From Aquabacterium sp. (GTDB lineage Bacteria > Pseudomonadota > Gammaproteobacteria > Burkholderiales > Burkholderiaceae_C): 64,000 bases of DNA. The translations under genes were made by a program, and so were the position numbers. A model generated the notes under the pieces. The model was not told where the DNA came from and searched no databases. It saw nothing but the letters and a program-made list of their open reading frames with translations. The first letter of the stretch is position 1, and the number at the start of each line of letters is the position of its first letter. The stretch is taken from NCBI RefSeq assembly GCF_016234775.1, contig NZ_JACRAH010000036.1:1-64000 (forward strand), in the 5' to 3' direction. Below are positions 15,055-62,962 of the stretch, piece after piece.

Positions 15055-15843
15055 TCAGCGCAGCTTGCGACGGCGTGCGCCCATCAGCAGGCCGGCCAGC
15101 CCCAGTGCGTACAAGCTCACGGTGGCGGGTTCCGGCACGCTGCTGACCTGGATGCCTACGCTCATGCCGTAGGCGGTGGCCAAGTTGGGGTTGCTGCCGA
15201 GTTGGGCTTCGTAGTCGGCTCCGCCGACGATGAGGGAGTAGGTGCCAGCGCCCAGCGCAAACGTTTTGCTGGTGATGCCGTCCAGCAGACCATCGCCTGT
15301 GCCGCCTTGAACTGCACCCACGCCATCAACCGAGTAGCCTTTGAAGCTCAGTGTGTTGATGGCGCCAAAGTCGTTGCCGATCTGAAAGTCACCCACGGCA
15401 TGCCAGACGCCTTCAACGGGGAAGGGCAGGGAGGCCTTGTAGGCGGTGGATGCGGTGGATGTGTCATACGACAGATAGCTCACGGCGGCGTTGCTCGGAT
15501 CCACGCTGGTGGGCGCAATGCCCTGGTAGATCGAGAAGCCGGGCAGCAATCCGCCAACCGATGTGCTGGTGGCGCCGGCATGGGCGCTGACGGTCAAGGC
15601 GACCAGCGCATCGCCCGTGAGCGTGAACTTGAACCACTTGCCTTTGTGGCTGTCGCCCCAGTCCGCATCGGCGGCATCGGCCCAGCCGTAGTTGCCGCTC
15701 ACGGCCTGGTTGCTGATGGTGTTGCTGGTCGAACTGAGGCCATCGTAGGTGCCCAGATCGCGGCCAGTGTAAGAGACGTGTGCAAGGGCGGGCAGAGACA
15801 AGCTGGCCGCACTCAGGGCCAGGACGAAATGACGGGTCAACAT
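15055..15843 (-). CDS. PEP-CTERM sorting-domain protein
   Basis: A 262-residue exported protein when started at the ATG at 15843 (signal peptide MLTRHFVLALSAASLSLPALA); the 54 extra track residues are not secretion-like. The C-terminus VPEPATVSLYALGLAGLLMGARRRKLR is a textbook PEP-CTERM signal. The body is Ser/Thr/Gly-rich with KGKWFKFTLTGDALVALTVSA, suggesting a beta-sandwich. It lies 30 bases before the other PEP-CTERM gene and in the same direction, so it probably belongs to the metal cassette. No enzymatic motif is visible. Confidence 0.8.
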   Translation of the reverse strand: MLTRHFVLALSAASLSLPALAHVSYTGRDLGTYDGLSSTSNTISNQAVSGNYGWADAADADWGDSHKGKWFKFTLTGDALVALTVSAHAGATSTSVGGLLPGFSIYQGIAPTSVDPSNAAVSYLSYDTSTASTAYKASLPFPVEGVWHAVGDFQIGNDFGAINTLSFKGYSVDGVGAVQGGTGDGLLDGITSKTFALGAGTYSLIVGGADYEAQLGSNPNLATAYGMSVGIQVSSVPEPATVSLYALGLAGLLMGARRRKLR

Positions 15844-41965: not shown

Positions 41966-42784
41966 TCAGAAGGGGCCGTTCGATACAAAGCTCGACAGGG
42001 CTGCATCCTGGCCATTGAGGAACGGGCTGTAGCGGGTGTCGCCATCGGCGAAGCGCTTGGTCCAGGAGATGTTGCTGTAGCTGGCCGGCTCGCTGGCCTT
42101 GGTGGGGAAGAAGTGATCAGCACCATTGATGACCGGCAGCATCTTGGGTGTGGTGGCCGGGATGGCGTCGTAGAACTTCTGCGAGTGACCGGAGACCGAT
42201 GCCACCACATCAGAAGAACCGCCAATGATGGCCGCTGGCACCTTGTTGGCCTTCATCTTCGTGGTCGAGGTGTGCCACGGTGCGTAGGCCACGGCGGAGA
42301 CAAGGCCCGGCGTCAAGCTTGCCGCTTCCAGCGTGCCGCCGCCACCCATGGACCACCCCGACACGCCCTGGCGCGAGGTGTCCATCTTGCCGGCTACGGG
42401 GCCGGTGGTCAGTGCCGTCGTTGTCTTGAGCGCGGCCAGCAGTTGCGTGGCGCGGCTGGATGGGAAGTCAAACAGGGTGTTGGTGGCAATGGTCACGACC
42501 ACGAAGCCGTGCGTGGCCAGACGCTTGCTGATGGCCGTCATCGAACTTTCAGCCGAGACAAAGCCAGGGCACACGGCCACCACGGCGTACTTGCCGGGCG
42601 TGTTGGGTGAGTAAACGGTGCCCGCGCCGAAGCCATTGCCCTTGATTGTTTGCGAAGACACGGCATAAGGGCCATCGGCCTTCAGCGCATCCAGGGTGGG
42701 GGTGGGGCCGTTCTGAACGGCGTGGGCGGACAGGGCAACCAGGCTCAGGCCGATGGCACCAAGCGTGTGTTTCATGGACATCAT
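41966..42784 (-). CDS. PETase/cutinase-like secreted polyester hydrolase
   Basis: A 272-residue exported alpha/beta-hydrolase; the ATG at 42784 has AGGA 7-9 bases upstream and a signal peptide MKHTLGAIGLSLVALSAHA. The layout matches polyester hydrolases: PGF with the oxyanion residue F75, GWSMGGGG with Ser145, APW with Trp170, Asp192 (GSSDVV), His224 (ADHFF) and FADGDTRYSPF near the end. Spacing is within one or two residues of the Ideonella PETase triad. It combines the PETase-type Trp before the Ser with a cutinase-type Phe after the His. It has one Cys (C72), so both disulfides of Ideonella PETase are absent. It probably cleaves polyesters or lipids outside the cell; plastic activity is untested. 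Confidence 0.87.
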   Translation of the reverse strand: MMSMKHTLGAIGLSLVALSAHAVQNGPTPTLDALKADGPYAVSSQTIKGNGFGAGTVYSPNTPGKYAVVAVCPGFVSAESSMTAISKRLATHGFVVVTIATNTLFDFPSSRATQLLAALKTTTALTTGPVAGKMDTSRQGVSGWSMGGGGTLEAASLTPGLVSAVAYAPWHTSTTKMKANKVPAAIIGGSSDVVASVSGHSQKFYDAIPATTPKMLPVINGADHFFPTKASEPASYSNISWTKRFADGDTRYSPFLNGQDAALSSFVSNGPF

Positions 42785-42992: not shown

Positions 42993-44060
42993 TCAGTTGA
43001 CCTCTGTCGGCATGGTGCATTCCGCGTCGGCCGGGTTGATCTTGCAGCGGATGCGCTTGAGCAGCTTGAGGCCTTGCTTGTTGTAGATGCCCTGGTCGAT
43101 CAGTTCAACACGGGTCTGCCTGAGGAACTCGGCGTACTTGGGCGTGTTCTCTGCTGACAGTTCCATCCAGACGGAGGCGGGCAGTTCGGCCTCGGCCTTG
43201 TTGACGCGCGCCAGAACCTCGTCAAAATGGCTCAGCCAGTACTGGCGGGAGGCTTCGGCAAAGCCAGGTGCAAAGCGTGTGCGGTCGATGATGAGCTGGT
43301 AGCTCACGATCATGTAGGGGAAGTGGCTGACTGCACCTTGGGGCCCCATGCCTTTGAGCAACTCCAGTGGCTTGAAGGCGATGGCCGGCGCGGCAGCCAT
43401 ATCGGCCATGCCGTTGTTGAACTTGTTGGCAAAGTTGGTGATGTCGGCGTTGACAGGTTGTGCCCCGGCCTTCTGAATCAAGGCGGCCTGGGCTTTGTCA
43501 TGGTCAAAGGCGAGGATCTTCTTGCCCGCCATGGCCTCGGGGGTGTTCATGCGCCTGTCTCGCACGACGGCATACACCGCACCCACGTCGATGAGCCCGG
43601 CCAGTTCGTACTTGCCCTGCACCACATAGCTGGACGCGCCTGGTGAGTTGAAGATCTGGCTGGCGGTGCGGATCACCTCGTGGCCTGCGGCATGGTCCAC
43701 CTTGCCTTGGCGCAGGATCAGCGCGGCGCCGAAGGAGTCGGTGGCTGCGGTGACCGGGTTGAAAGCGCGGGTGCGAAAGGCAGTGGCCAGCAAGGCGTCA
43801 CACTGGCCGGTTCGGAAGTCATCGGCTGCCACGCGCTCATCCACATACGACTTCAACACCAGGGGGGGGGCTTTGGCCTGCATGGCCAGGGCGTAGTCCT
43901 TGGTGGCGTTGAACATGTCGCCACTGGCGCCTTGCAGGTCAAACACACAGAGCTTGGGCTCTGCGACCGGCGCGGCCCACGCTGCGTGCGCGCACAGGCC
44001 CGCAATCAGGGCAAGGCATGAGGTGGTCCGGCGCAACGATGATGGGGGGATGGCAGTCAT
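42993..44060 (-). CDS. DUF6091-type periplasmic solute-binding protein
   Basis: A 355-residue exported protein with signal peptide (LALIAGLCAHAAWAA). The fold signature is that of TRAP-like solute-binding proteins: LCVFDLQGASGDMF, DFRTGQCDALLATAFRTRAFN, MAGKKILAFDHDKAQ. I recall such proteins as DUF6091, putative solute binding. No transporter membrane genes are adjacent, so the ligand and partner are unknown. A nine-C run encodes APPL at residues ~63-66, a slip-prone tract. Confidence 0.72.
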   Translation of the reverse strand: MTAIPPSSLRRTTSCLALIAGLCAHAAWAAPVAEPKLCVFDLQGASGDMFNATKDYALAMQAKAPPLVLKSYVDERVAADDFRTGQCDALLATAFRTRAFNPVTAATDSFGAALILRQGKVDHAAGHEVIRTASQIFNSPGASSYVVQGKYELAGLIDVGAVYAVVRDRRMNTPEAMAGKKILAFDHDKAQAALIQKAGAQPVNADITNFANKFNNGMADMAAAPAIAFKPLELLKGMGPQGAVSHFPYMIVSYQLIIDRTRFAPGFAEASRQYWLSHFDEVLARVNKAEAELPASVWMELSAENTPKYAEFLRQTRVELIDQGIYNKQGLKLLKRIRCKINPADAECTMPTEVN

Positions 44061-44105: not shown

Positions 44106-44137
44106 ACAAAAAGGGCCTTCGCGTCGCGAAAGCCCTT
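44106..44137 (-). terminator. terminator after the cohesin gene
   Basis: Minus-strand hairpin AAGGGCTTTCGCG / CGCGAAGGCCCTT with a short loop and TTTTT. A second perfect 10-bp repeat (ATGCGGCGCC / GGCGCCGCAT, 44140-44173) lies between it and the gene stop. Confidence 0.8.
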
Positions 44138-44195
44138 CCATGCGGCGCCAGATGTCGCCTTCCGGCGCCGCATGCCGCCTGGCCTCAATGCGCCA

Positions 44196-44747
44196 TCAGC
44201 TGTGACGACGGCGCGTGACCAGTGCCATGCCGCCCAGTCCTGCCATCAACAAGGCCAGGCTCGATGGTTCAGGAACGGCGGTGACCGTGGCACTGCCGCT
44301 CACGTAGCTGATCGCCACCGGGTCCCCGAACTCGTTGCCGAAGGGGAAGGAGGGTGACTCGCTCAGCGTGATGGCCGAGGTGCCCGCGCCAATGGCCTTG
44401 AACGTCAAGCTCGCGGTCAGGAAATCACCTTTGATCGGCGCCACGAAGGTGTTGAAGTAGATGTCGCTGACGGTGCCTGATGCGGGGTCGAGCAGGCCGG
44501 TTGACTTGGCAAACTCCCACGATGCCGGGATGGTGATGGCATCGAGTTGCAGGATGCTGGGGTCGAACGCCAGGTTGTAGCCCCCGCCGAAGATCTTGTC
44601 GGGGAAGCCGGCGGCCTGGATGTCCACAGAGAAGCTGTCACCCAGGTTGACATCGGTGTGGATGGGGTTGACGGACACCGTCTGAGCTTGAGTGGCAAAG
44701 GCAGCGAGCAGGGCGATGGACGCCATCAGGGTGTGATGCATTTTCAT
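44196..44747 (-). CDS. cohesin-like PEP-CTERM protein (anchored scaffold candidate)
   Basis: A 183-residue exported protein with AGGAG before the ATG and a signal peptide (LMASIALLAAFATQAQ). Residues ~22-150 form a cohesin-like beta-sandwich: VNLGDSFSVDIQAAG, GGYNLAFDPSILQLDAI, GDFLTASLTFKAIGAGTSAITLSE. The C-terminus VPEPSSLALLMAGLGGMALVTRRRHS is a PEP-CTERM signal for exosortase processing. It lies 30 bases after the dockerin-bearing protease gene and is followed by a terminator, so the two form an operon. Cohesin domains bind dockerins, so it probably holds the protease at the cell surface or in the matrix. A generic carbohydrate-binding or adhesin role is the alternative. Confidence 0.8.
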   Translation of the reverse strand: MKMHHTLMASIALLAAFATQAQTVSVNPIHTDVNLGDSFSVDIQAAGFPDKIFGGGYNLAFDPSILQLDAITIPASWEFAKSTGLLDPASGTVSDIYFNTFVAPIKGDFLTASLTFKAIGAGTSAITLSESPSFPFGNEFGDPVAISYVSGSATVTAVPEPSSLALLMAGLGGMALVTRRRHS

Positions 44748-44777
44748 GATGTTGAACTCCTGTTGAGGATGAGGGGT

Positions 44778-47447
44778 TTACTTGCGGGTGATGGTGTCGA
44801 GATGGAGGGCCGAGGGGCCAGGGGGCTTGCCGAACAACTTGGCGAACAGGCTGATGTCCAGCGAGTTGACGATGCCGTCACCGTTGAGATCGCCAGGGAC
44901 GCTGCGCTTGCTGAACTGGTTGCGCATCGCGGACAGATCGAGCGAGTTGACGAAGCCATCGTTGTTCAGGTCGGCGTCGCAGGCATTGCCATAGCCATCA
45001 CCATCGGTGTCGAGCTGCGTCTTGTTGGGCACGTACATGCAGTTGTCGCGGCTGTCAGGGGTGCCATCACCGTCGCCGTCTGTCTCTGTGGATGCCGCCT
45101 GTGTGGTCGCACCATCTGGTGAGCCCACACGGATCCACACGTTGTTGCCCTTGAAGTCACCCAGATCGATCGAGCCGTCGCCGTTGTCGTCGATCAAGCC
45201 ACGTCCCACGGTGCCGCCGGTGATCGGGTCAATGGCGATGGCCGTGATCCATTCAGGCTTGGGCATATTGGGCGGGCAGGTCAGGCAACCAGGCTGGAAG
45301 GGCACCTTGATCTTCACCAGGTTCGACTCCAGTGCGATCAGGGGGAGGCTGAACTTCCACGGGGGCGAGACGCGCAGCTTGACGGTGGGGTCACCCAGCA
45401 GGTTGTAGATGTTGAGTTCCTGTCGCAGGTTGACGATGCCGGGTCGGACCTGGTTGGCGTTCAGTGGGTGCTGGTTGGTTTGCGAACCGTTGGCCACGTC
45501 ATGCACATAGGTCTTGGCGTAGTTCAGCAGGTCACCCAGGCGTTGCACGGGGCTGTTGGTGCCGAAGCTGTTGATCAGGCCTGGGAACACACCATCAAAC
45601 AAACCCAGGGTGAGCTGGTTGTTGTCAGTGGTGCTGCTCTGGCGTGTGTCGCCAATGACGGCCAGGGCGCCGTCGGCCTTGCGCAGGAAGCTCTCGGCCC
45701 AGTAGGTGCTGCTGGCCGATATGCCGTAACCCGTGCTCCAGATGTTGGCAGGCAGGTCCACCGTTTCGTTGTCGAACACACCGCTGGCGCAGTTGATGCT
45801 GAAGACAACCGGGAACTGGTTGTTGGTGACCGACACGAGCGACAGGTCACCGGTCAGGAAGGACGGATCCCCCCAGCCATCCCACCAGCCGTGGTCGCGG
45901 TGGTAGACCAGCGCCGAGCCTTTGTTGATGGCCGCTGCCATGCCGGCCTTGGAGCCGTTCCAGGCAAAGGCAGGCTTCTTCAGCTCATTGGGTATGGCAT
46001 CACCGTTGTTGTAGAACAGCGGGTTGGCATCGGCGTCTGCCGTGTAGAAGCGGTTCACCTCGTATCCCTTGCCAATGGCGTGGTCACGCACGATCTCCGA
46101 AGTCTCCACGAACCAGCGGCGGTCTCGCGTCAGGCTGGTGCCGGTGCTGTCACGTACCTGGTAGAAAGAGCCGAAGGTCAGCCGGCTGTAGAAGTCCTGG
46201 CCAAACAGCGAGTTGAGCGGTGGCGCGTTCTCGAATGCGATCACCTTGGAGACGATGGTGTTGGCTTGTGCCAGCGTGTCCACCGGGAAGCGGCCGATGC
46301 CGAAGGGCGGGATCGTGGTGGGGCCATCACCAGCCTGGAACTGGCCGTACCACATGTCACCAGCGTTGCGCGCCATGTCCCAGATGTTCTTGTTGGCGTC
46401 GTAGTGTGTGGGCACGTATTCCGCGTCGCCCATGAACAGCACCCACTTCGGGCGCACCAGGTGCGAGGTGTAGTAGTTGCTGATCCAGTTGCGGATCTGG
46501 CTCTCGGTGGCGCTGGCGCCTGCCCCCGTGATCTCGGCCGTGGTCACCACGCGGGTCGAGATGCCCAAGGCTTCCTTGTGCGCCTTGAGTGCATCTGCGG
46601 CAGCCTTGAAGTTGGGGTGGGTGACGATCAGGTAGCGCGCACCCAGGAAGGCCGGGTTGATCGTGATGGGGGGCGCACAGGTCAGCTCGGCCACCAGGCC
46701 TTTGTTGAGCGCGAATTGCACGGCAGGCAGCGCCAGCCTTTCGATGCGTTGATCGATGCCATCAAAGCCGGCGCTTTGCGTGGTGCCGGTGACGCCCTTG
46801 AGCTTGAGCCGGTCATAGCGGAAGCAGGAGCCCGGGTGCTTGATGGTGATCAGGTAACTGGGGTAGTAGGTGATCAGCTGCTGGGCCGGGTCATAGCCAT
46901 AGGGACTGAGCTGATAGCCCTGCACATTGGCATCGCCGTGGAAGACGCTGCGTTCGCCTTGCTTTTGCCCAGGTGTTTTGTAGCCCTTGGCCCATATGTC
47001 TGCGTTGAACTGAAACTTGGTGTCGTTGTCGGCACCCGTTCGTGATGACATGGGGGGCTGGATGGGGTAGAGACGGGCTGGCAGGCGCTGGATGCCGCCT
47101 TCGGGCACGATCTCGACCGTGCCGCCTTTGCCATCCACCGGCAGGGCCAGCGAGAAGCCGGCCACGGGCACTTCGGGCAGACCGACATCATTGCTGTCGC
47201 TGCTCACGGCACCGGTGCTGCCCTTTTGCGCAAAGCGCTGGAACAAGCCGCTGGTGGTCTCCACATTGGCCAGCAGGGGGGTGGGTACGGTCACGCGCAG
47301 CACGGTCTGGTCTGCGCTCATCGATACGGTGTCAACGCGCACACCGGGCGCAGTCTGCGCCAGCGAGGTCTGGCTCAGCGCCAACTGTGCCAGCAGCGCT
47401 AAGCCGCCTTGCGCACAGGCCCGAAGCCTGGGATTCATCAAGTTCAT
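44778..47447 (-). CDS. C25 (gingipain-like) cysteine protease with TSP3 linker and C-terminal dockerin
   Basis: About 889 residues from the ATG at 47447, which has a perfect GGAGG six bases upstream. Layout: signal peptide; N-terminal beta region; C25 caspase-like domain (YLIVTHPNFKAAADALKAHKEALGISTRVV to INCASGVFDNE) with candidate catalytic His in YHRDHG and Cys in FSINCASG; Ig-like region; a thrombospondin type-3 calcium stretch (DSRDNCMYVPNKTQLDTDGDGYGNACD); and a dockerin with two calcium loops, DLNNDGFVNSLD and DLNGDGIVNSLD. Both loops carry Ser-Leu at the recognition positions. It would be secreted, activated and docked onto the cohesin protein encoded next. Substrate is unknown. Confidence 0.88.
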   Translation of the reverse strand: MNLMNPRLRACAQGGLALLAQLALSQTSLAQTAPGVRVDTVSMSADQTVLRVTVPTPLLANVETTSGLFQRFAQKGSTGAVSSDSNDVGLPEVPVAGFSLALPVDGKGGTVEIVPEGGIQRLPARLYPIQPPMSSRTGADNDTKFQFNADIWAKGYKTPGQKQGERSVFHGDANVQGYQLSPYGYDPAQQLITYYPSYLITIKHPGSCFRYDRLKLKGVTGTTQSAGFDGIDQRIERLALPAVQFALNKGLVAELTCAPPITINPAFLGARYLIVTHPNFKAAADALKAHKEALGISTRVVTTAEITGAGASATESQIRNWISNYYTSHLVRPKWVLFMGDAEYVPTHYDANKNIWDMARNAGDMWYGQFQAGDGPTTIPPFGIGRFPVDTLAQANTIVSKVIAFENAPPLNSLFGQDFYSRLTFGSFYQVRDSTGTSLTRDRRWFVETSEIVRDHAIGKGYEVNRFYTADADANPLFYNNGDAIPNELKKPAFAWNGSKAGMAAAINKGSALVYHRDHGWWDGWGDPSFLTGDLSLVSVTNNQFPVVFSINCASGVFDNETVDLPANIWSTGYGISASSTYWAESFLRKADGALAVIGDTRQSSTTDNNQLTLGLFDGVFPGLINSFGTNSPVQRLGDLLNYAKTYVHDVANGSQTNQHPLNANQVRPGIVNLRQELNIYNLLGDPTVKLRVSPPWKFSLPLIALESNLVKIKVPFQPGCLTCPPNMPKPEWITAIAIDPITGGTVGRGLIDDNGDGSIDLGDFKGNNVWIRVGSPDGATTQAASTETDGDGDGTPDSRDNCMYVPNKTQLDTDGDGYGNACDADLNNDGFVNSLDLSAMRNQFSKRSVPGDLNGDGIVNSLDISLFAKLFGKPPGPSALHLDTITRK

Positions 47448-47557
47448 GGTCGCCTCCAAAAGCGGTCTCACAACAACACCGAACCCGGACTGGCTCGGTA
47501 TGGGAGCGAAGACTAGGCAGTGGGGGTGGGCTCCACAAGACCATGCAGCGCGTGCTT

Positions 47558-47638
47558 CCCTAAGGGTGGGGGCCTGAAGCCTTCTGCAGACCTAGAACAG
47601 GGGCCCTAACTCAAGGGCGGGCACCCCCACCCTTAGGG
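47558..47638. repeat. long inverted repeat upstream of the protease-cohesin operon
   Basis: CCCTAAGGGTGGGGG (47558-47572) and its exact complement CCCCCACCCTTAGGG (47624-47638), 51 bases apart, in the gap between the minus-strand protease gene and plus-strand pyrC. Each arm contains the near-palindrome CCCTAAGGG. It could be a double operator or a cruciform; the rest of the 269-base gap shows nothing further. Confidence 0.75.
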
Positions 47639-47716
47639 AAAAAGCCAAAGGTCATGTCGGAAATGAGAAAATTCCTGTTTTCGCCCTTTTAGGGCTTCTC
47701 TCACCGCACGATCGCC

Positions 47717-53230: not shown

Positions 53231-53609
53231 GAAGTCAGCCAGACCGCCGCTGGTGCAAGGATCGAAAGGTCGCACTGGAGGAAGGTCCGGACTGCACAGG
53301 GTAGCGTAGGAGGTAACACCTCTCCACCGCAAGGTGAGGATCAGAGCAACAGAGACGAGTCTCTGCGGCCTTGGGCGGGGCGAAAGCCACGTCAAAGGCC
53401 ATTCGAAAGAATGGCCCGGGACGCAGAGGGTGAAACGGGCAATCTCTACGCGCAGCAACACCAAATAGGCACACATTGACCTGTCCCGGGGAGTGTGCGG
53501 GTAGGTGGCATCGAGCCGTTCTGGCGACAGGCGGCCCAGAGGAATGGCGGTCACAGCTCAGCGTCGCGAGACACGGGGCTGCACAGAATCCGGCCTATCG
53601 GCTGACTTC
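53231..53609 (+). ncRNA. rnpB: RNase P RNA, bacterial class A
   Basis: The 5' end GAAGTCAGC pairs with the 3' end GCTGACTTC (helix P1). The conserved core GGAGGAAGGTCCGGACTGCACAGGGTAG, the late ACAGAATCCGG and the overall length (~380 bases) fit class A RNase P RNA. A short T-run (CTTTTTTC) follows the 3' end. It is the catalytic part of RNase P, which trims tRNA 5' ends. Confidence 0.95.
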
Positions 53610-53687
53610 ACACTTTTTTCACATCGCAGGCATTCAAGTTCGGCGTTTTACTGGCCGAAATCTCCGTCGTATTGCGGAGAGTCGATC

Positions 53688-54914
53688 ATGATGGATGCGT
53701 TGCGTGTACGTTTGGCCCAAGTCTTCACACTGGCTGCCAGCATGGCCCTGGTCATGGGCGCCTATGCGGCAGACGGGCATGGGCATGGGGATGCGCCGGC
53801 CGACGGCGGGGATACCAAGGAGGCGAGCATCAAGCCCTCGCTCAAGCCCAATCTGAAAGCCGAAGCGCAGAACGCCGAAGGTCGCCGGGCTGAAGGTCGA
53901 TCCGATGAGCGTGCATCCGAGCCCAGGGGTGAAACCTTACGCAAGGGCGAAGGGAAGGATGCTCGCCGCGAGGCCAGTGGCCGCAGTGAGGGTGCATCCG
54001 AAGCCCGCTCGAATGTCTCCATGGCCGAGTTGCGCGATCTGATCGATCAAAAGATTGCCGAAGTGCGCACAAAGCGGGAGCCAGCACCGGTTGTACGCTT
54101 GCGTCCCAAGCCGGTGGTGAAGGCCAAACCCGTTGCGAGCACGCACGATGCACATGGCGCGCTGCTCCCTGTCGACCCCCATGGTGGCCCTGCCAGCAAG
54201 CACGGAGGTGATGCGCGCTCACCCAATCCCCACGGCCACGATGTGCACTGGGCCTATAGCGGCGACACCGGCCCCGAGAGCTGGGGGCGGCTTAAGCCGG
54301 AGTTCCAGCAATGCATGCTGGGCAAGCGCCAGAGCCCCATCGACATCCGAGAAGGCATCCCCGTTCAACTGGACCCGATCCAGTTCGACTACCGCCCCTC
54401 CAACTTCCGCGTGATCGACAACGGCCACACCGTGCAGGTCAATGTGGAGCCGGGTAATGGCATCACCGTGATGGGGCGCCGCTACGAATTGCTGCAATTC
54501 CACTTCCATCGCCCCAGCGAGGAACGCATCAATGGCCGCCAATACGAAATGGTGGCGCACCTGGTGCACAAGGACATGGATGGCAAATTGGCCGTGGTAG
54601 CCGTGCTGATGGACCAAGGCAAGGCCCACCCGCTGGTGCAGCAAGTCTGGAACAACCTGCCGCTGGAGAAGAATTCGGAGCAAGGTGCGATGACCCAGAT
54701 TGACCTGACGCACCTCTTGCCAGAGCAGCGCCAGTACTACACCTACATGGGCTCATTGACCACGCCGCCGTGCTCGGAGGGCGTACTGTGGATGGTGATG
54801 AAGCAGCCGGCAGGGATGTCGCGCGAGCAGATCGGCGTGTTCTCCAAGCTTTACCCGATGAACGCCCGCCCGGTGCAGTCGGCTGCCGGGCGCCTGATCA
54901 AGGACGGTCAGTAA
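53688..54914 (+). CDS. exported alpha-carbonic anhydrase with charged N-terminal region
   Basis: A 408-residue exported protein; the ATG at 53688 has GGAG upstream and a signal peptide ([16 protein letters not shown]), while the track start lies inside rnpB. Residues ~25-185 are His-rich then Lys/Glu/Ala-rich and charged ([21 protein letters not shown]). The anhydrase domain (~185-400) has [21 protein letters not shown], zinc ligands in [12 protein letters not shown] and AHLVHKD, and [16 protein letters not shown]. It converts CO2 and bicarbonate in the periplasm. Alpha-carbonic anhydrases are usually ~220-260 residues, so the long linker is unusual. Confidence 0.9.
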
Positions 54915-62308: not shown

Positions 62309-62962
62309 ATGACCAAGTCGATTTTCCGCTCGCTCAGCGCCATCGCTGTCGCTGCCAGCCTGGTGACCGTGTCTCCTGCTGCCATGGCCGCCACCAAGGC
62401 CGATGTGGCTTTTTCGGCGGACATCATTACCTCCTTCACGATGTTCAACGTGTTTTTCACGGCCTCTGGCTCGGGCACGTACGCCAACAACACGTTCAGC
62501 AGCGCCGCGTCGGACGTGGCGGCCGGTGCGACCCAGCTGGTGTGGGATCCCGCCTCGGCATTGACGCTGTCCATCGCTGGCAACGGCGCGATGACCTTTG
62601 ATGGCCTGGTGTACGACGCCGGCAAGTCTGCCGTGATCGGTGACGTGCACTTCGTGAACGGCACGACCAAGTTCGACTTCGCCGATGTGTCCGTGTTCTC
62701 GGTTGGCCCCCTGACGCCTGCGTTCTCCACCCTGAGCACCGGCGGCACGGTGTCCGGTGATTTTGCGCTGAGCACAACGGGTCTCGGCGGGGTGGCCAAG
62801 ACACTGGGGATCACCGTGCCTATTCCAGCCCAGAACGTGGGCAAGCTGACCATGACTTCCACCGCTGCCCCCGCTGTGCCTGAGCCCTCTACCGCCGCTC
62901 TGGGCCTGTTGGGCCTGGCTGGCATCGTGACCACGCTGGCTCGTCGCCGCCGCCAAGGCTGA
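62309..62962 (+). CDS. PEP-CTERM sorting-domain protein
   Basis: A 217-residue exported protein; GGGGAG before the ATG, signal peptide (LSAIAVAASLVTVSPAAMA), a beta-rich body and the C-terminal signal VPEPSTAALGLLGLAGIVTTLARRRRQG. No enzymatic motif is visible. It is probably an exosortase-processed surface or matrix protein. It stands alone between the CusF-like gene and argB. Confidence 0.85.
   Translation: MTKSIFRSLSAIAVAASLVTVSPAAMAATKADVAFSADIITSFTMFNVFFTASGSGTYANNTFSSAASDVAAGATQLVWDPASALTLSIAGNGAMTFDGLVYDAGKSAVIGDVHFVNGTTKFDFADVSVFSVGPLTPAFSTLSTGGTVSGDFALSTTGLGGVAKTLGITVPIPAQNVGKLTMTSTAAPAVPEPSTAALGLLGLAGIVTTLARRRRQG

What the first reader, a model, noticed from the sequence alone, without database searches (positions are those of the whole stretch)
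44196..47447. Cohesin-dockerin pair joined to exosortase sorting: a surface-docked gingipain-like protease
A secreted C25 protease ends in a two-loop dockerin (both loops with Ser-Leu at recognition positions). The next gene, 30 bases on, is a lone cohesin-like domain with a PEP-CTERM signal. This reads as a minimal one-to-one docking system that anchors an enzyme at the surface via exosortase, outside cellulose breakdown and in a beta-proteobacterium.
Basis: partly seen in the sequence, partly recalled or inferred. Interest (0 to 1): 0.85.

Follow-up and report, generated by a model that had tools for sequence, protein, structure and literature searches.

The report
Exosortase-anchored cohesin with dockerin enzymes
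A secreted protease and the small protein encoded next to it look like a plug and a surface-bound socket, and the same plug-and-socket gene pair recurs across many related bacteria with quite different enzymes, pointing to an apparently undescribed general way for Gram-negative bacteria to hold secreted enzymes at the cell.

Summary
At 44778-47447 (-) lies a C25 protease with an intact His519/Cys553 dyad, thrombospondin-3 repeats and a two-loop type I dockerin (Ser-Leu in both loops). Thirty bases on, 44196-44747 (-) encodes a signal peptide, one cohesin domain and a PEP-CTERM signal. The cohesin is below Pfam's cut-off on its own. Its family profile hits only cohesins in the PDB at E<=0.001, and its predicted fold matches cohesins in all 50 best structures.

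The pair is not a local oddity. Every C25/dockerin protease of this type found in the family has a cohesin-PEP gene beside it. Relatives of the cohesin sit beside dockerin proteins with unrelated catalytic domains: M12B protease, GH10, phosphatase, phospholipase C, PQQ dehydrogenase, subtilase. A blind Pfam-against-Pfam count gave 17 of 25 small cohesins with a dockerin within 6 kb, against 0 of 17 secretin-like cohesins. Six of six held-out loci were paired. Cohesin and dockerin divergence correlates across different enzymes (r 0.62; 0 of 5000 permutations).

Best reading: an exosortase-processed single-cohesin anchor that holds one dedicated enzyme. Binding and surface location are inferred, not shown; the docking model was inconclusive. 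New variant of a known kind.

The parts
44778..47447 (-). Secreted C25 (gingipain-family) cysteine protease, 889 aa, C-terminal dockerin
   Evidence: a GTG start at 47471 is also open
47358..47447 (-). N-terminal signal peptide of the protease (about residues 1-30)
   Evidence: read from the sequence; no signal-peptide program was available
46842..47324 (-). Propeptide_C25-like region, residues 42-202
   Evidence: PF08126 E 2.5e-4, 20.6 bits, just below the cut-off of 22
45375..46634 (-). Peptidase C25 catalytic domain with His519 (45891-45893) and Cys553 (45789-45791)
   Evidence: the only His and Cys invariant in 10 homologues
44973..45086 (-). Thrombospondin type 3 repeat region before the dockerin
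44829..44972 (-). Two-loop type I dockerin, Ser-Leu at the recognition positions of both loops
44757..44761 (-). AGGAG Shine-Dalgarno of the cohesin gene in the 30-base intergenic gap
   Evidence: read from the sequence
44196..44747 (-). Single-cohesin PEP-CTERM protein, 183 aa
44283..44684 (-). Cohesin domain
44205..44279 (-). PEP-CTERM sorting signal: VPEP, hydrophobic helix, RRR
   Evidence: helix 161-182 in the model
44107..44139 (-). Hairpin followed by a T run after the cohesin gene, likely intrinsic terminator
   Evidence: -21.2 kcal/mol, z -5.0; the consensus scan did not list it
47556..47640 (.). Inverted pair TTCCCTAAGGGTGGGGG / CCCCCACCCTTAGGGAA upstream of the protease, candidate operator
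   Evidence: CCCTWAGGG occurs 3 times in the whole genome, 2 of them here

Best explanation
The two genes form a bicistronic docking module. Both products cross the inner membrane by Sec signal peptides. The 183-residue protein is a single cohesin carrying a PEP-CTERM tail; one of the cell's exosortases removes that tail and sends the cohesin to the outer surface or its exopolysaccharide. The C25 protease, probably exported through the type II secretion system, is held there by its C-terminal calcium-loaded dockerin plugging into the cohesin. The module is one case of a general design in Gammaproteobacteria (in the GTDB sense, which includes the betaproteobacteria): a dedicated exosortase-tagged cohesin encoded beside a dockerin-tagged enzyme. 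Steps shown here: gene structure, domains, predicted cohesin fold, recurrence with many enzymes, parallel divergence. Steps inferred: binding, calcium dependence, exosortase processing, final location, export route.
For: Domains. Cohesin fold: all 50 best PDB matches are cohesins, E down to 2.7e-10; model core pLDDT about 94; the family profile hits only cohesins at E<=0.001, best 4.5e-13. Pairing in the family: 8 of 8 C25/dockerin genomes with intact contigs have the cohesin next door. Relatives of the cohesin sit beside dockerin proteins with unrelated catalytic domains. Blind Pfam-against-Pfam count: 17 of 25 small cohesins have a dockerin within 6 kb, against 0 of 17 cohesins in 700-1100 aa ORFs; Fisher 4e-6; about 0.1 expected by chance. 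Class-wide: 15 of 20; held-out sample 6 of 6. Gene order varies (enzyme first, cohesin first, divergent) yet the pair persists. Parallel divergence: four matching groups, Mantel r 0.62 with one pair per enzyme class, 0 of 5000 permutations. Genome G196 holds two pairs whose cohesins fall in different partner clades. Four exosortases, 40 PEP-CTERM matches and GspD are present.
Against: No binding evidence of any kind. The single-chain dockerin-cohesin model had pTM 0.57 and gives no interface reading, so it neither supports nor refutes docking. The window's cohesin scores below Pfam's cut-off alone. Many dockerins in the family have no cohesin nearby, and a few cohesin-like PEP-CTERM proteins have no dockerin nearby (L085-L088). 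Co-inheritance of neighbouring genes can by itself produce parallel trees. The destination of PEP-CTERM proteins is not established here.
Confidence: 0.72

Rival explanations
1. The cohesin and dockerin bind, but the cohesin works as an export or folding partner in the periplasm and lets the enzyme go, rather than anchoring it at the surface.
For: Both proteins have signal peptides; where exosortase products end up is uncertain; the protease has a weak propeptide match, so a retention step before release is conceivable.
Against: Partners include quite different enzymes such as GH10, phosphatase and dehydrogenase, with no evident shared folding need. A sorting tail on the cohesin alone fits placing better than chaperoning.
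Confidence: 0.12
2. The two genes are co-inherited neighbours without physical contact: the dockerin binds calcium and stabilises the enzyme or binds something else, and the cohesin-like protein is an unrelated matrix protein.
For: Cohesin-fold domains occur with no dockerin nearby, for instance at the end of secretin-like proteins. Lone dockerins exist in the same family.
Against: Pairing recurs with unrelated enzymes, in three gene orders and across many families of the class. Parallel divergence across different enzymes.
Confidence: 0.1
3. The cohesin is a shared socket: several dockerin proteins in the cell dock on it, as in a small scaffold.
For: Some relatives carry two dockerin genes by one cohesin (L112, L113), and G035 has a second dockerin protein elsewhere with Ala-Leu loops (L099).
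Against: In the window's genome a six-frame search found one dockerin protein only, though the assembly is 94.7% complete.
Confidence: 0.06

Closest known systems
Single-cohesin surface anchors of cellulosomes (ScaE of Ruminococcus flavefaciens; OlpA of Clostridium thermocellum)
   Same: One cohesin on a cell-anchored protein that holds a dockerin-bearing partner. ScaE and OlpA cohesin structures are among the matches. Their anchoring types are from general knowledge: ScaE by sortase, OlpA by S-layer domains.
   Different: Gram-negative host, exosortase PEP-CTERM tail instead of sortase or S-layer anchoring, one dedicated non-cellulosomal enzyme encoded next door, no multi-cohesin scaffold.
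Non-cellulosomal cohesins and dockerins
   Same: Cohesin and dockerin outside cellulose breakdown. [quoted passage not shown] 2009. PMC2386152 notes dockerin-like and cohesin-like ORFs in Saccharophagus and leaves binding open.
   Different: Here each partner is assigned to a specific neighbour gene, with a sorting signal and a recurrent rule.
PEP-CTERM/exosortase system (Haft et al. 2006, PMC1569441)
   Same: Same sorting signal, exosortases present in the genome.
   Different: [quoted passage not shown] here the tagged protein is a docking socket in an operon with an enzyme.
Gingipains of Porphyromonas gingivalis (C25, type IX secretion)
   Same: Same protease family with conserved His and Cys; surface attachment.
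   Different: No type IX C-terminal sorting domain was found in family scans; a dockerin takes its place.

Membership tests
Cohesin domain (PF00963) | Sequence match above the curated cut-off | tested here: inconclusive
   Window protein 21.8 bits against 24.1; relatives up to 53 bits; 23 of 30 members match at E<=0.01 and no other fold family does
Cohesin domain (PF00963) | Cohesin beta-sandwich fold | tested here: met
   Model pLDDT 87.7; 50 of 50 best PDB matches are cohesins, TM by target up to 0.77
Cohesin domain (PF00963) | Binds a dockerin | not testable with these tools
   Read-through construct pTM 0.57, no interface reading
Type I dockerin (PF00404) | Two calcium loops, each followed by a helix, above cut-off | tested here: met
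   36.1 bits against 22.9; two helices in the model
Peptidase C25 | Catalytic His and Cys, full-length domain | tested here: met
   E 7.5e-50 over positions 1-374; H519 and C553 invariant in 10 homologues
PEP-CTERM / exosortase system | Tail with PEP motif, hydrophobic helix, basic end, and an exosortase in the genome | tested here: met
Cellulosome | Scaffoldin with several cohesins | tested here: not met
   One cohesin in the protein; no Pfam cohesin match elsewhere in the genome
Type IX secretion substrate (gingipain type) | Type IX C-terminal sorting domain | tested here: not met
   No such match at E<=10 in Pfam or NCBIfam

The most novel reading that the evidence does not exclude
Gammaproteobacteria (including the betaproteobacteria) carry a general, modular system in which exosortase-processed single-cohesin proteins act as dedicated sockets for dockerin-tagged enzymes of many kinds (proteases, phosphatases, lipases, xylanases, dehydrogenases), with partner specificity kept by co-evolution. 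This would be a main non-cellulosomal use of cohesin-dockerin in Gram-negative bacteria and a concrete job for part of the PEP-CTERM proteome.
Probability: 0.6. Interest if true: 0.82.

Novelty: new variant of a known kind. Interest (0 to 1): 0.72.

Why it matters
The role of cohesins and dockerins outside cellulosomes, and what most exosortase-sorted proteins do, are both open. A recurrent rule that pairs an exosortase-tagged cohesin with a neighbouring dockerin enzyme would answer part of both, would predict the partner of dozens of unnamed PEP-CTERM proteins, and would add a set of new, probably orthogonal, protein-protein connectors for display on Gram-negative cells. The claim is directly testable with two short purified domains.

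Tried and rejected
(1) Direct search for cohesins in the own genome with PF00963 found none, because the window's domain is just below threshold; the family profile repaired this. (2) A dockerin-cohesin complex was modelled as one chain, using the in-frame 30-base gap with TAA read as Q. Dockerin helices formed at moderate confidence, but pTM was 0.57 and the tool gives no coordinates, so it was set aside as inconclusive. (3) Sigma-54 promoter motif upstream, as described for other PEP-CTERM genes: not found in the regions checked. (4) Cohesins in 700-1100 aa ORFs were first thought possible scaffolds. Three read in full look like secretins with a C-terminal cohesin-like domain, and none of 17 has a dockerin nearby, so they serve as a contrast group. 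(5) The idea that parallel trees merely reflect adjacent coding ends was weakened: in the M12B and GH10 groups the dockerin lies 2.8-4 kb from the cohesin and gene order differs. (6) Literature: no paper in the held library has cohesin, dockerin and PEP-CTERM together; exosortase with dockerin or cohesin gives one archaeal review. Peer et al. 2009 is not held, so prior mention there cannot be excluded.

Full report
WHAT IS THERE. The window is part of a 4.27 Mb genome (68 contigs, 94.7% complete) whose nearest relatives of the locus are Aquabacterium metagenome bins L008 (88% identity) and L007 (75%). On the minus strand, 44778-47447 encodes an 889-residue secreted protein: signal peptide, weak C25 propeptide match, full-length Peptidase_C25 (E 7.5e-50), thrombospondin type 3 repeats and a C-terminal type I dockerin. 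His519 and Cys553 are the only His and Cys invariant among ten homologues, including a distant one, in the order known for the C25 dyad. Both dockerin loops read NSLD at the recognition positions. After 30 bases with an AGGAG site, 44196-44747 encodes a signal peptide, one domain of about 134 residues and a canonical PEP-CTERM tail. A hairpin with a T run follows. So this looks like a two-gene operon.

IS THE SMALL PROTEIN A COHESIN? By Pfam alone it falls just short: 21.8 bits against 24.1. Three further tests agree that it is. Relatives from paired loci reach 53 bits, and 23 of 30 match cohesin with no competing family apart from PEP-CTERM. A profile of the family, with or without signal and tail, finds only cohesins in the PDB at E<=0.001, best 4.5e-13 and 2.2e-12. 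The AlphaFold model (pLDDT 87.7) matches cohesins in all 50 best PDB hits, E down to 2.7e-10 and TM up to 0.77 by target length.

DOES THE PAIR RECUR? Across 301 genomes of the same family, a search with the small protein and a separate search with the C25 family converge. All eight genomes with an intact contig and a C25 protease of this type have the cohesin-PEP gene beside it (the window's own genome is one of the eight). A ninth, G124, is a 3.4 kb contig and cannot be judged. More telling, other relatives of the cohesin stand beside dockerin proteins with different catalytic parts: PQQ dehydrogenase with diheme cytochrome (L060), purple acid phosphatase (L061, L065), M12B metalloprotease (L062, L063, L072, L073), GH10 (L074, L078, L084), phospholipase C (L079), metallophosphoesterase (L067), VWA7-like (L066), and others; in another family of the class, a subtilase (L123). 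Every first-round locus brought in by the cohesin showed a dockerin protein next door, and the wider family total is about 37 loci.

IS IT MORE THAN CHANCE? A count blind to the window used only Pfam Cohesin and Pfam Dockerin hits in the 301 genomes. Of 25 cohesins in ORFs up to 700 aa, 17 have a dockerin within 6 kb. Of 17 cohesins in 700-1100 aa ORFs that are not themselves dockerin proteins, none has. Fisher p is 4e-6, and about 0.1 pairs are expected by chance placement. Three of the large ORFs read in full look like secretins. Two more of the eight misses, L066 and L089, have a dockerin by motif or below threshold. In the wider class 15 of 20 examined loci are paired, often with other exosortase-like tails such as VPLP types. 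A last sample drawn across the phylum gave six new loci outside the family, all in the same class, and all six are paired.

DO THE PARTNERS CHANGE TOGETHER? The cohesin tree sorts by partner enzyme: C25, M12B and GH10 each need one change against shuffled means of 7.8, 4.7 and 4.8. Genome G196 holds two pairs, and its cohesins fall into the C25 and M12B clades. The dockerin tree gives the same four groups: C25 with the dehydrogenase; phosphatase with phospholipase C; VWA7 with metallophosphoesterase; M12B, GH10 and the rest. With one representative per enzyme class, so that the catalytic domains are mostly unrelated, identities correlate at r 0.62 and no permutation of 5000 reached it. Caution: I named the four groups after seeing the cohesin tree, and linked genes travel together. 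Against pure linkage, gene order varies between enzyme first, cohesin first and divergent, with the dockerin up to 4 kb from the cohesin.

MECHANISM. The most likely reading is an anchor and a plug. Exosortases (four in the genome) process the PEP-CTERM tail of the cohesin (one of 40 such matches). The protease leaves the cell, perhaps through the type II system whose secretin is present, and docks by its dockerin. It lacks a type IX sorting domain, so docking would replace the anchoring used by gingipains. In this genome the socket has one client, because only one dockerin protein was found. Elsewhere sharing is possible: two dockerin genes lie by one cohesin in L112 and L113, and G035 has a second dockerin protein, with DUF11 and TSP3 repeats, away from its pair (L099).

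WHAT REMAINS OPEN. Nothing here measures binding. A single-chain model of dockerin plus cohesin gave pTM 0.57, which I treat as no information on docking. Where PEP-CTERM proteins end up is not settled by these data. Some dockerins in the family have no cohesin neighbour, so pairing is a common rule and not a universal one.

KNOWN OR NEW? The parts are known and the combination appears not to be described in the library searched: no paper holds cohesin, dockerin and PEP-CTERM together, and exosortase with either word gives a single archaeal review that calls the non-cellulosomal function unknown. The closest working analogues are single-cohesin surface anchors of Gram-positive cellulosomes. 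I file it as a new variant of a known kind. One older review of non-cellulosomal modules could not be read.

Noticed in passing
window 47556-47572 (+) and 47624-47640 (-): Perfect 17-base inverted repeat with palindromic core CCCTWAGGG between the protease and the pyrC-like gene. The core occurs only three times in the genome, twice here; the third is inside a coding gene. Both arms are kept in L008 with a shorter spacer, one exact arm in L007 and L052. Candidate operator of the protease operon.
   Followed up: partly
window 41966-42784 (-): PETase-family polyester hydrolase-like protein (PF12740, E 1.8e-75) with a GWSMGGGG nucleophile motif and signal peptide, two genes downstream of the pair.
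   Followed up: no
window 42993-44060 (-): AdeT-like solute-binding protein (PF19582, E 7.5e-69).
   Followed up: no
L132:2902-5379, L133:469-2910, L134:655-3117: Secretin-like proteins with a C-terminal cohesin-like domain and no dockerin nearby; 17 cohesin ORFs of this size class in 301 genomes. The role of a cohesin fold on a secretin is unexplained.
   Followed up: partly
L091:7777-9525, L094:6124-7824, L101:6034-6663: A recurrent dockerin protein of about 570 aa without a cohesin neighbour.
   Followed up: no
L099:5918-8935: Second dockerin protein of G035 with DUF11 and TSP3 repeats and Ala-Leu loops like those of its C25 partner; possible second client of the same socket.
   Followed up: partly
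window 15067-15141 (-) and 62873-62953 (+): Two further PEP-CTERM tails in the window.
   Followed up: no
window 53505-54914 (+): Eukaryotic-type carbonic anhydrase (PF00194, E 1.6e-41) with a long charged N-terminal region.
   Followed up: no
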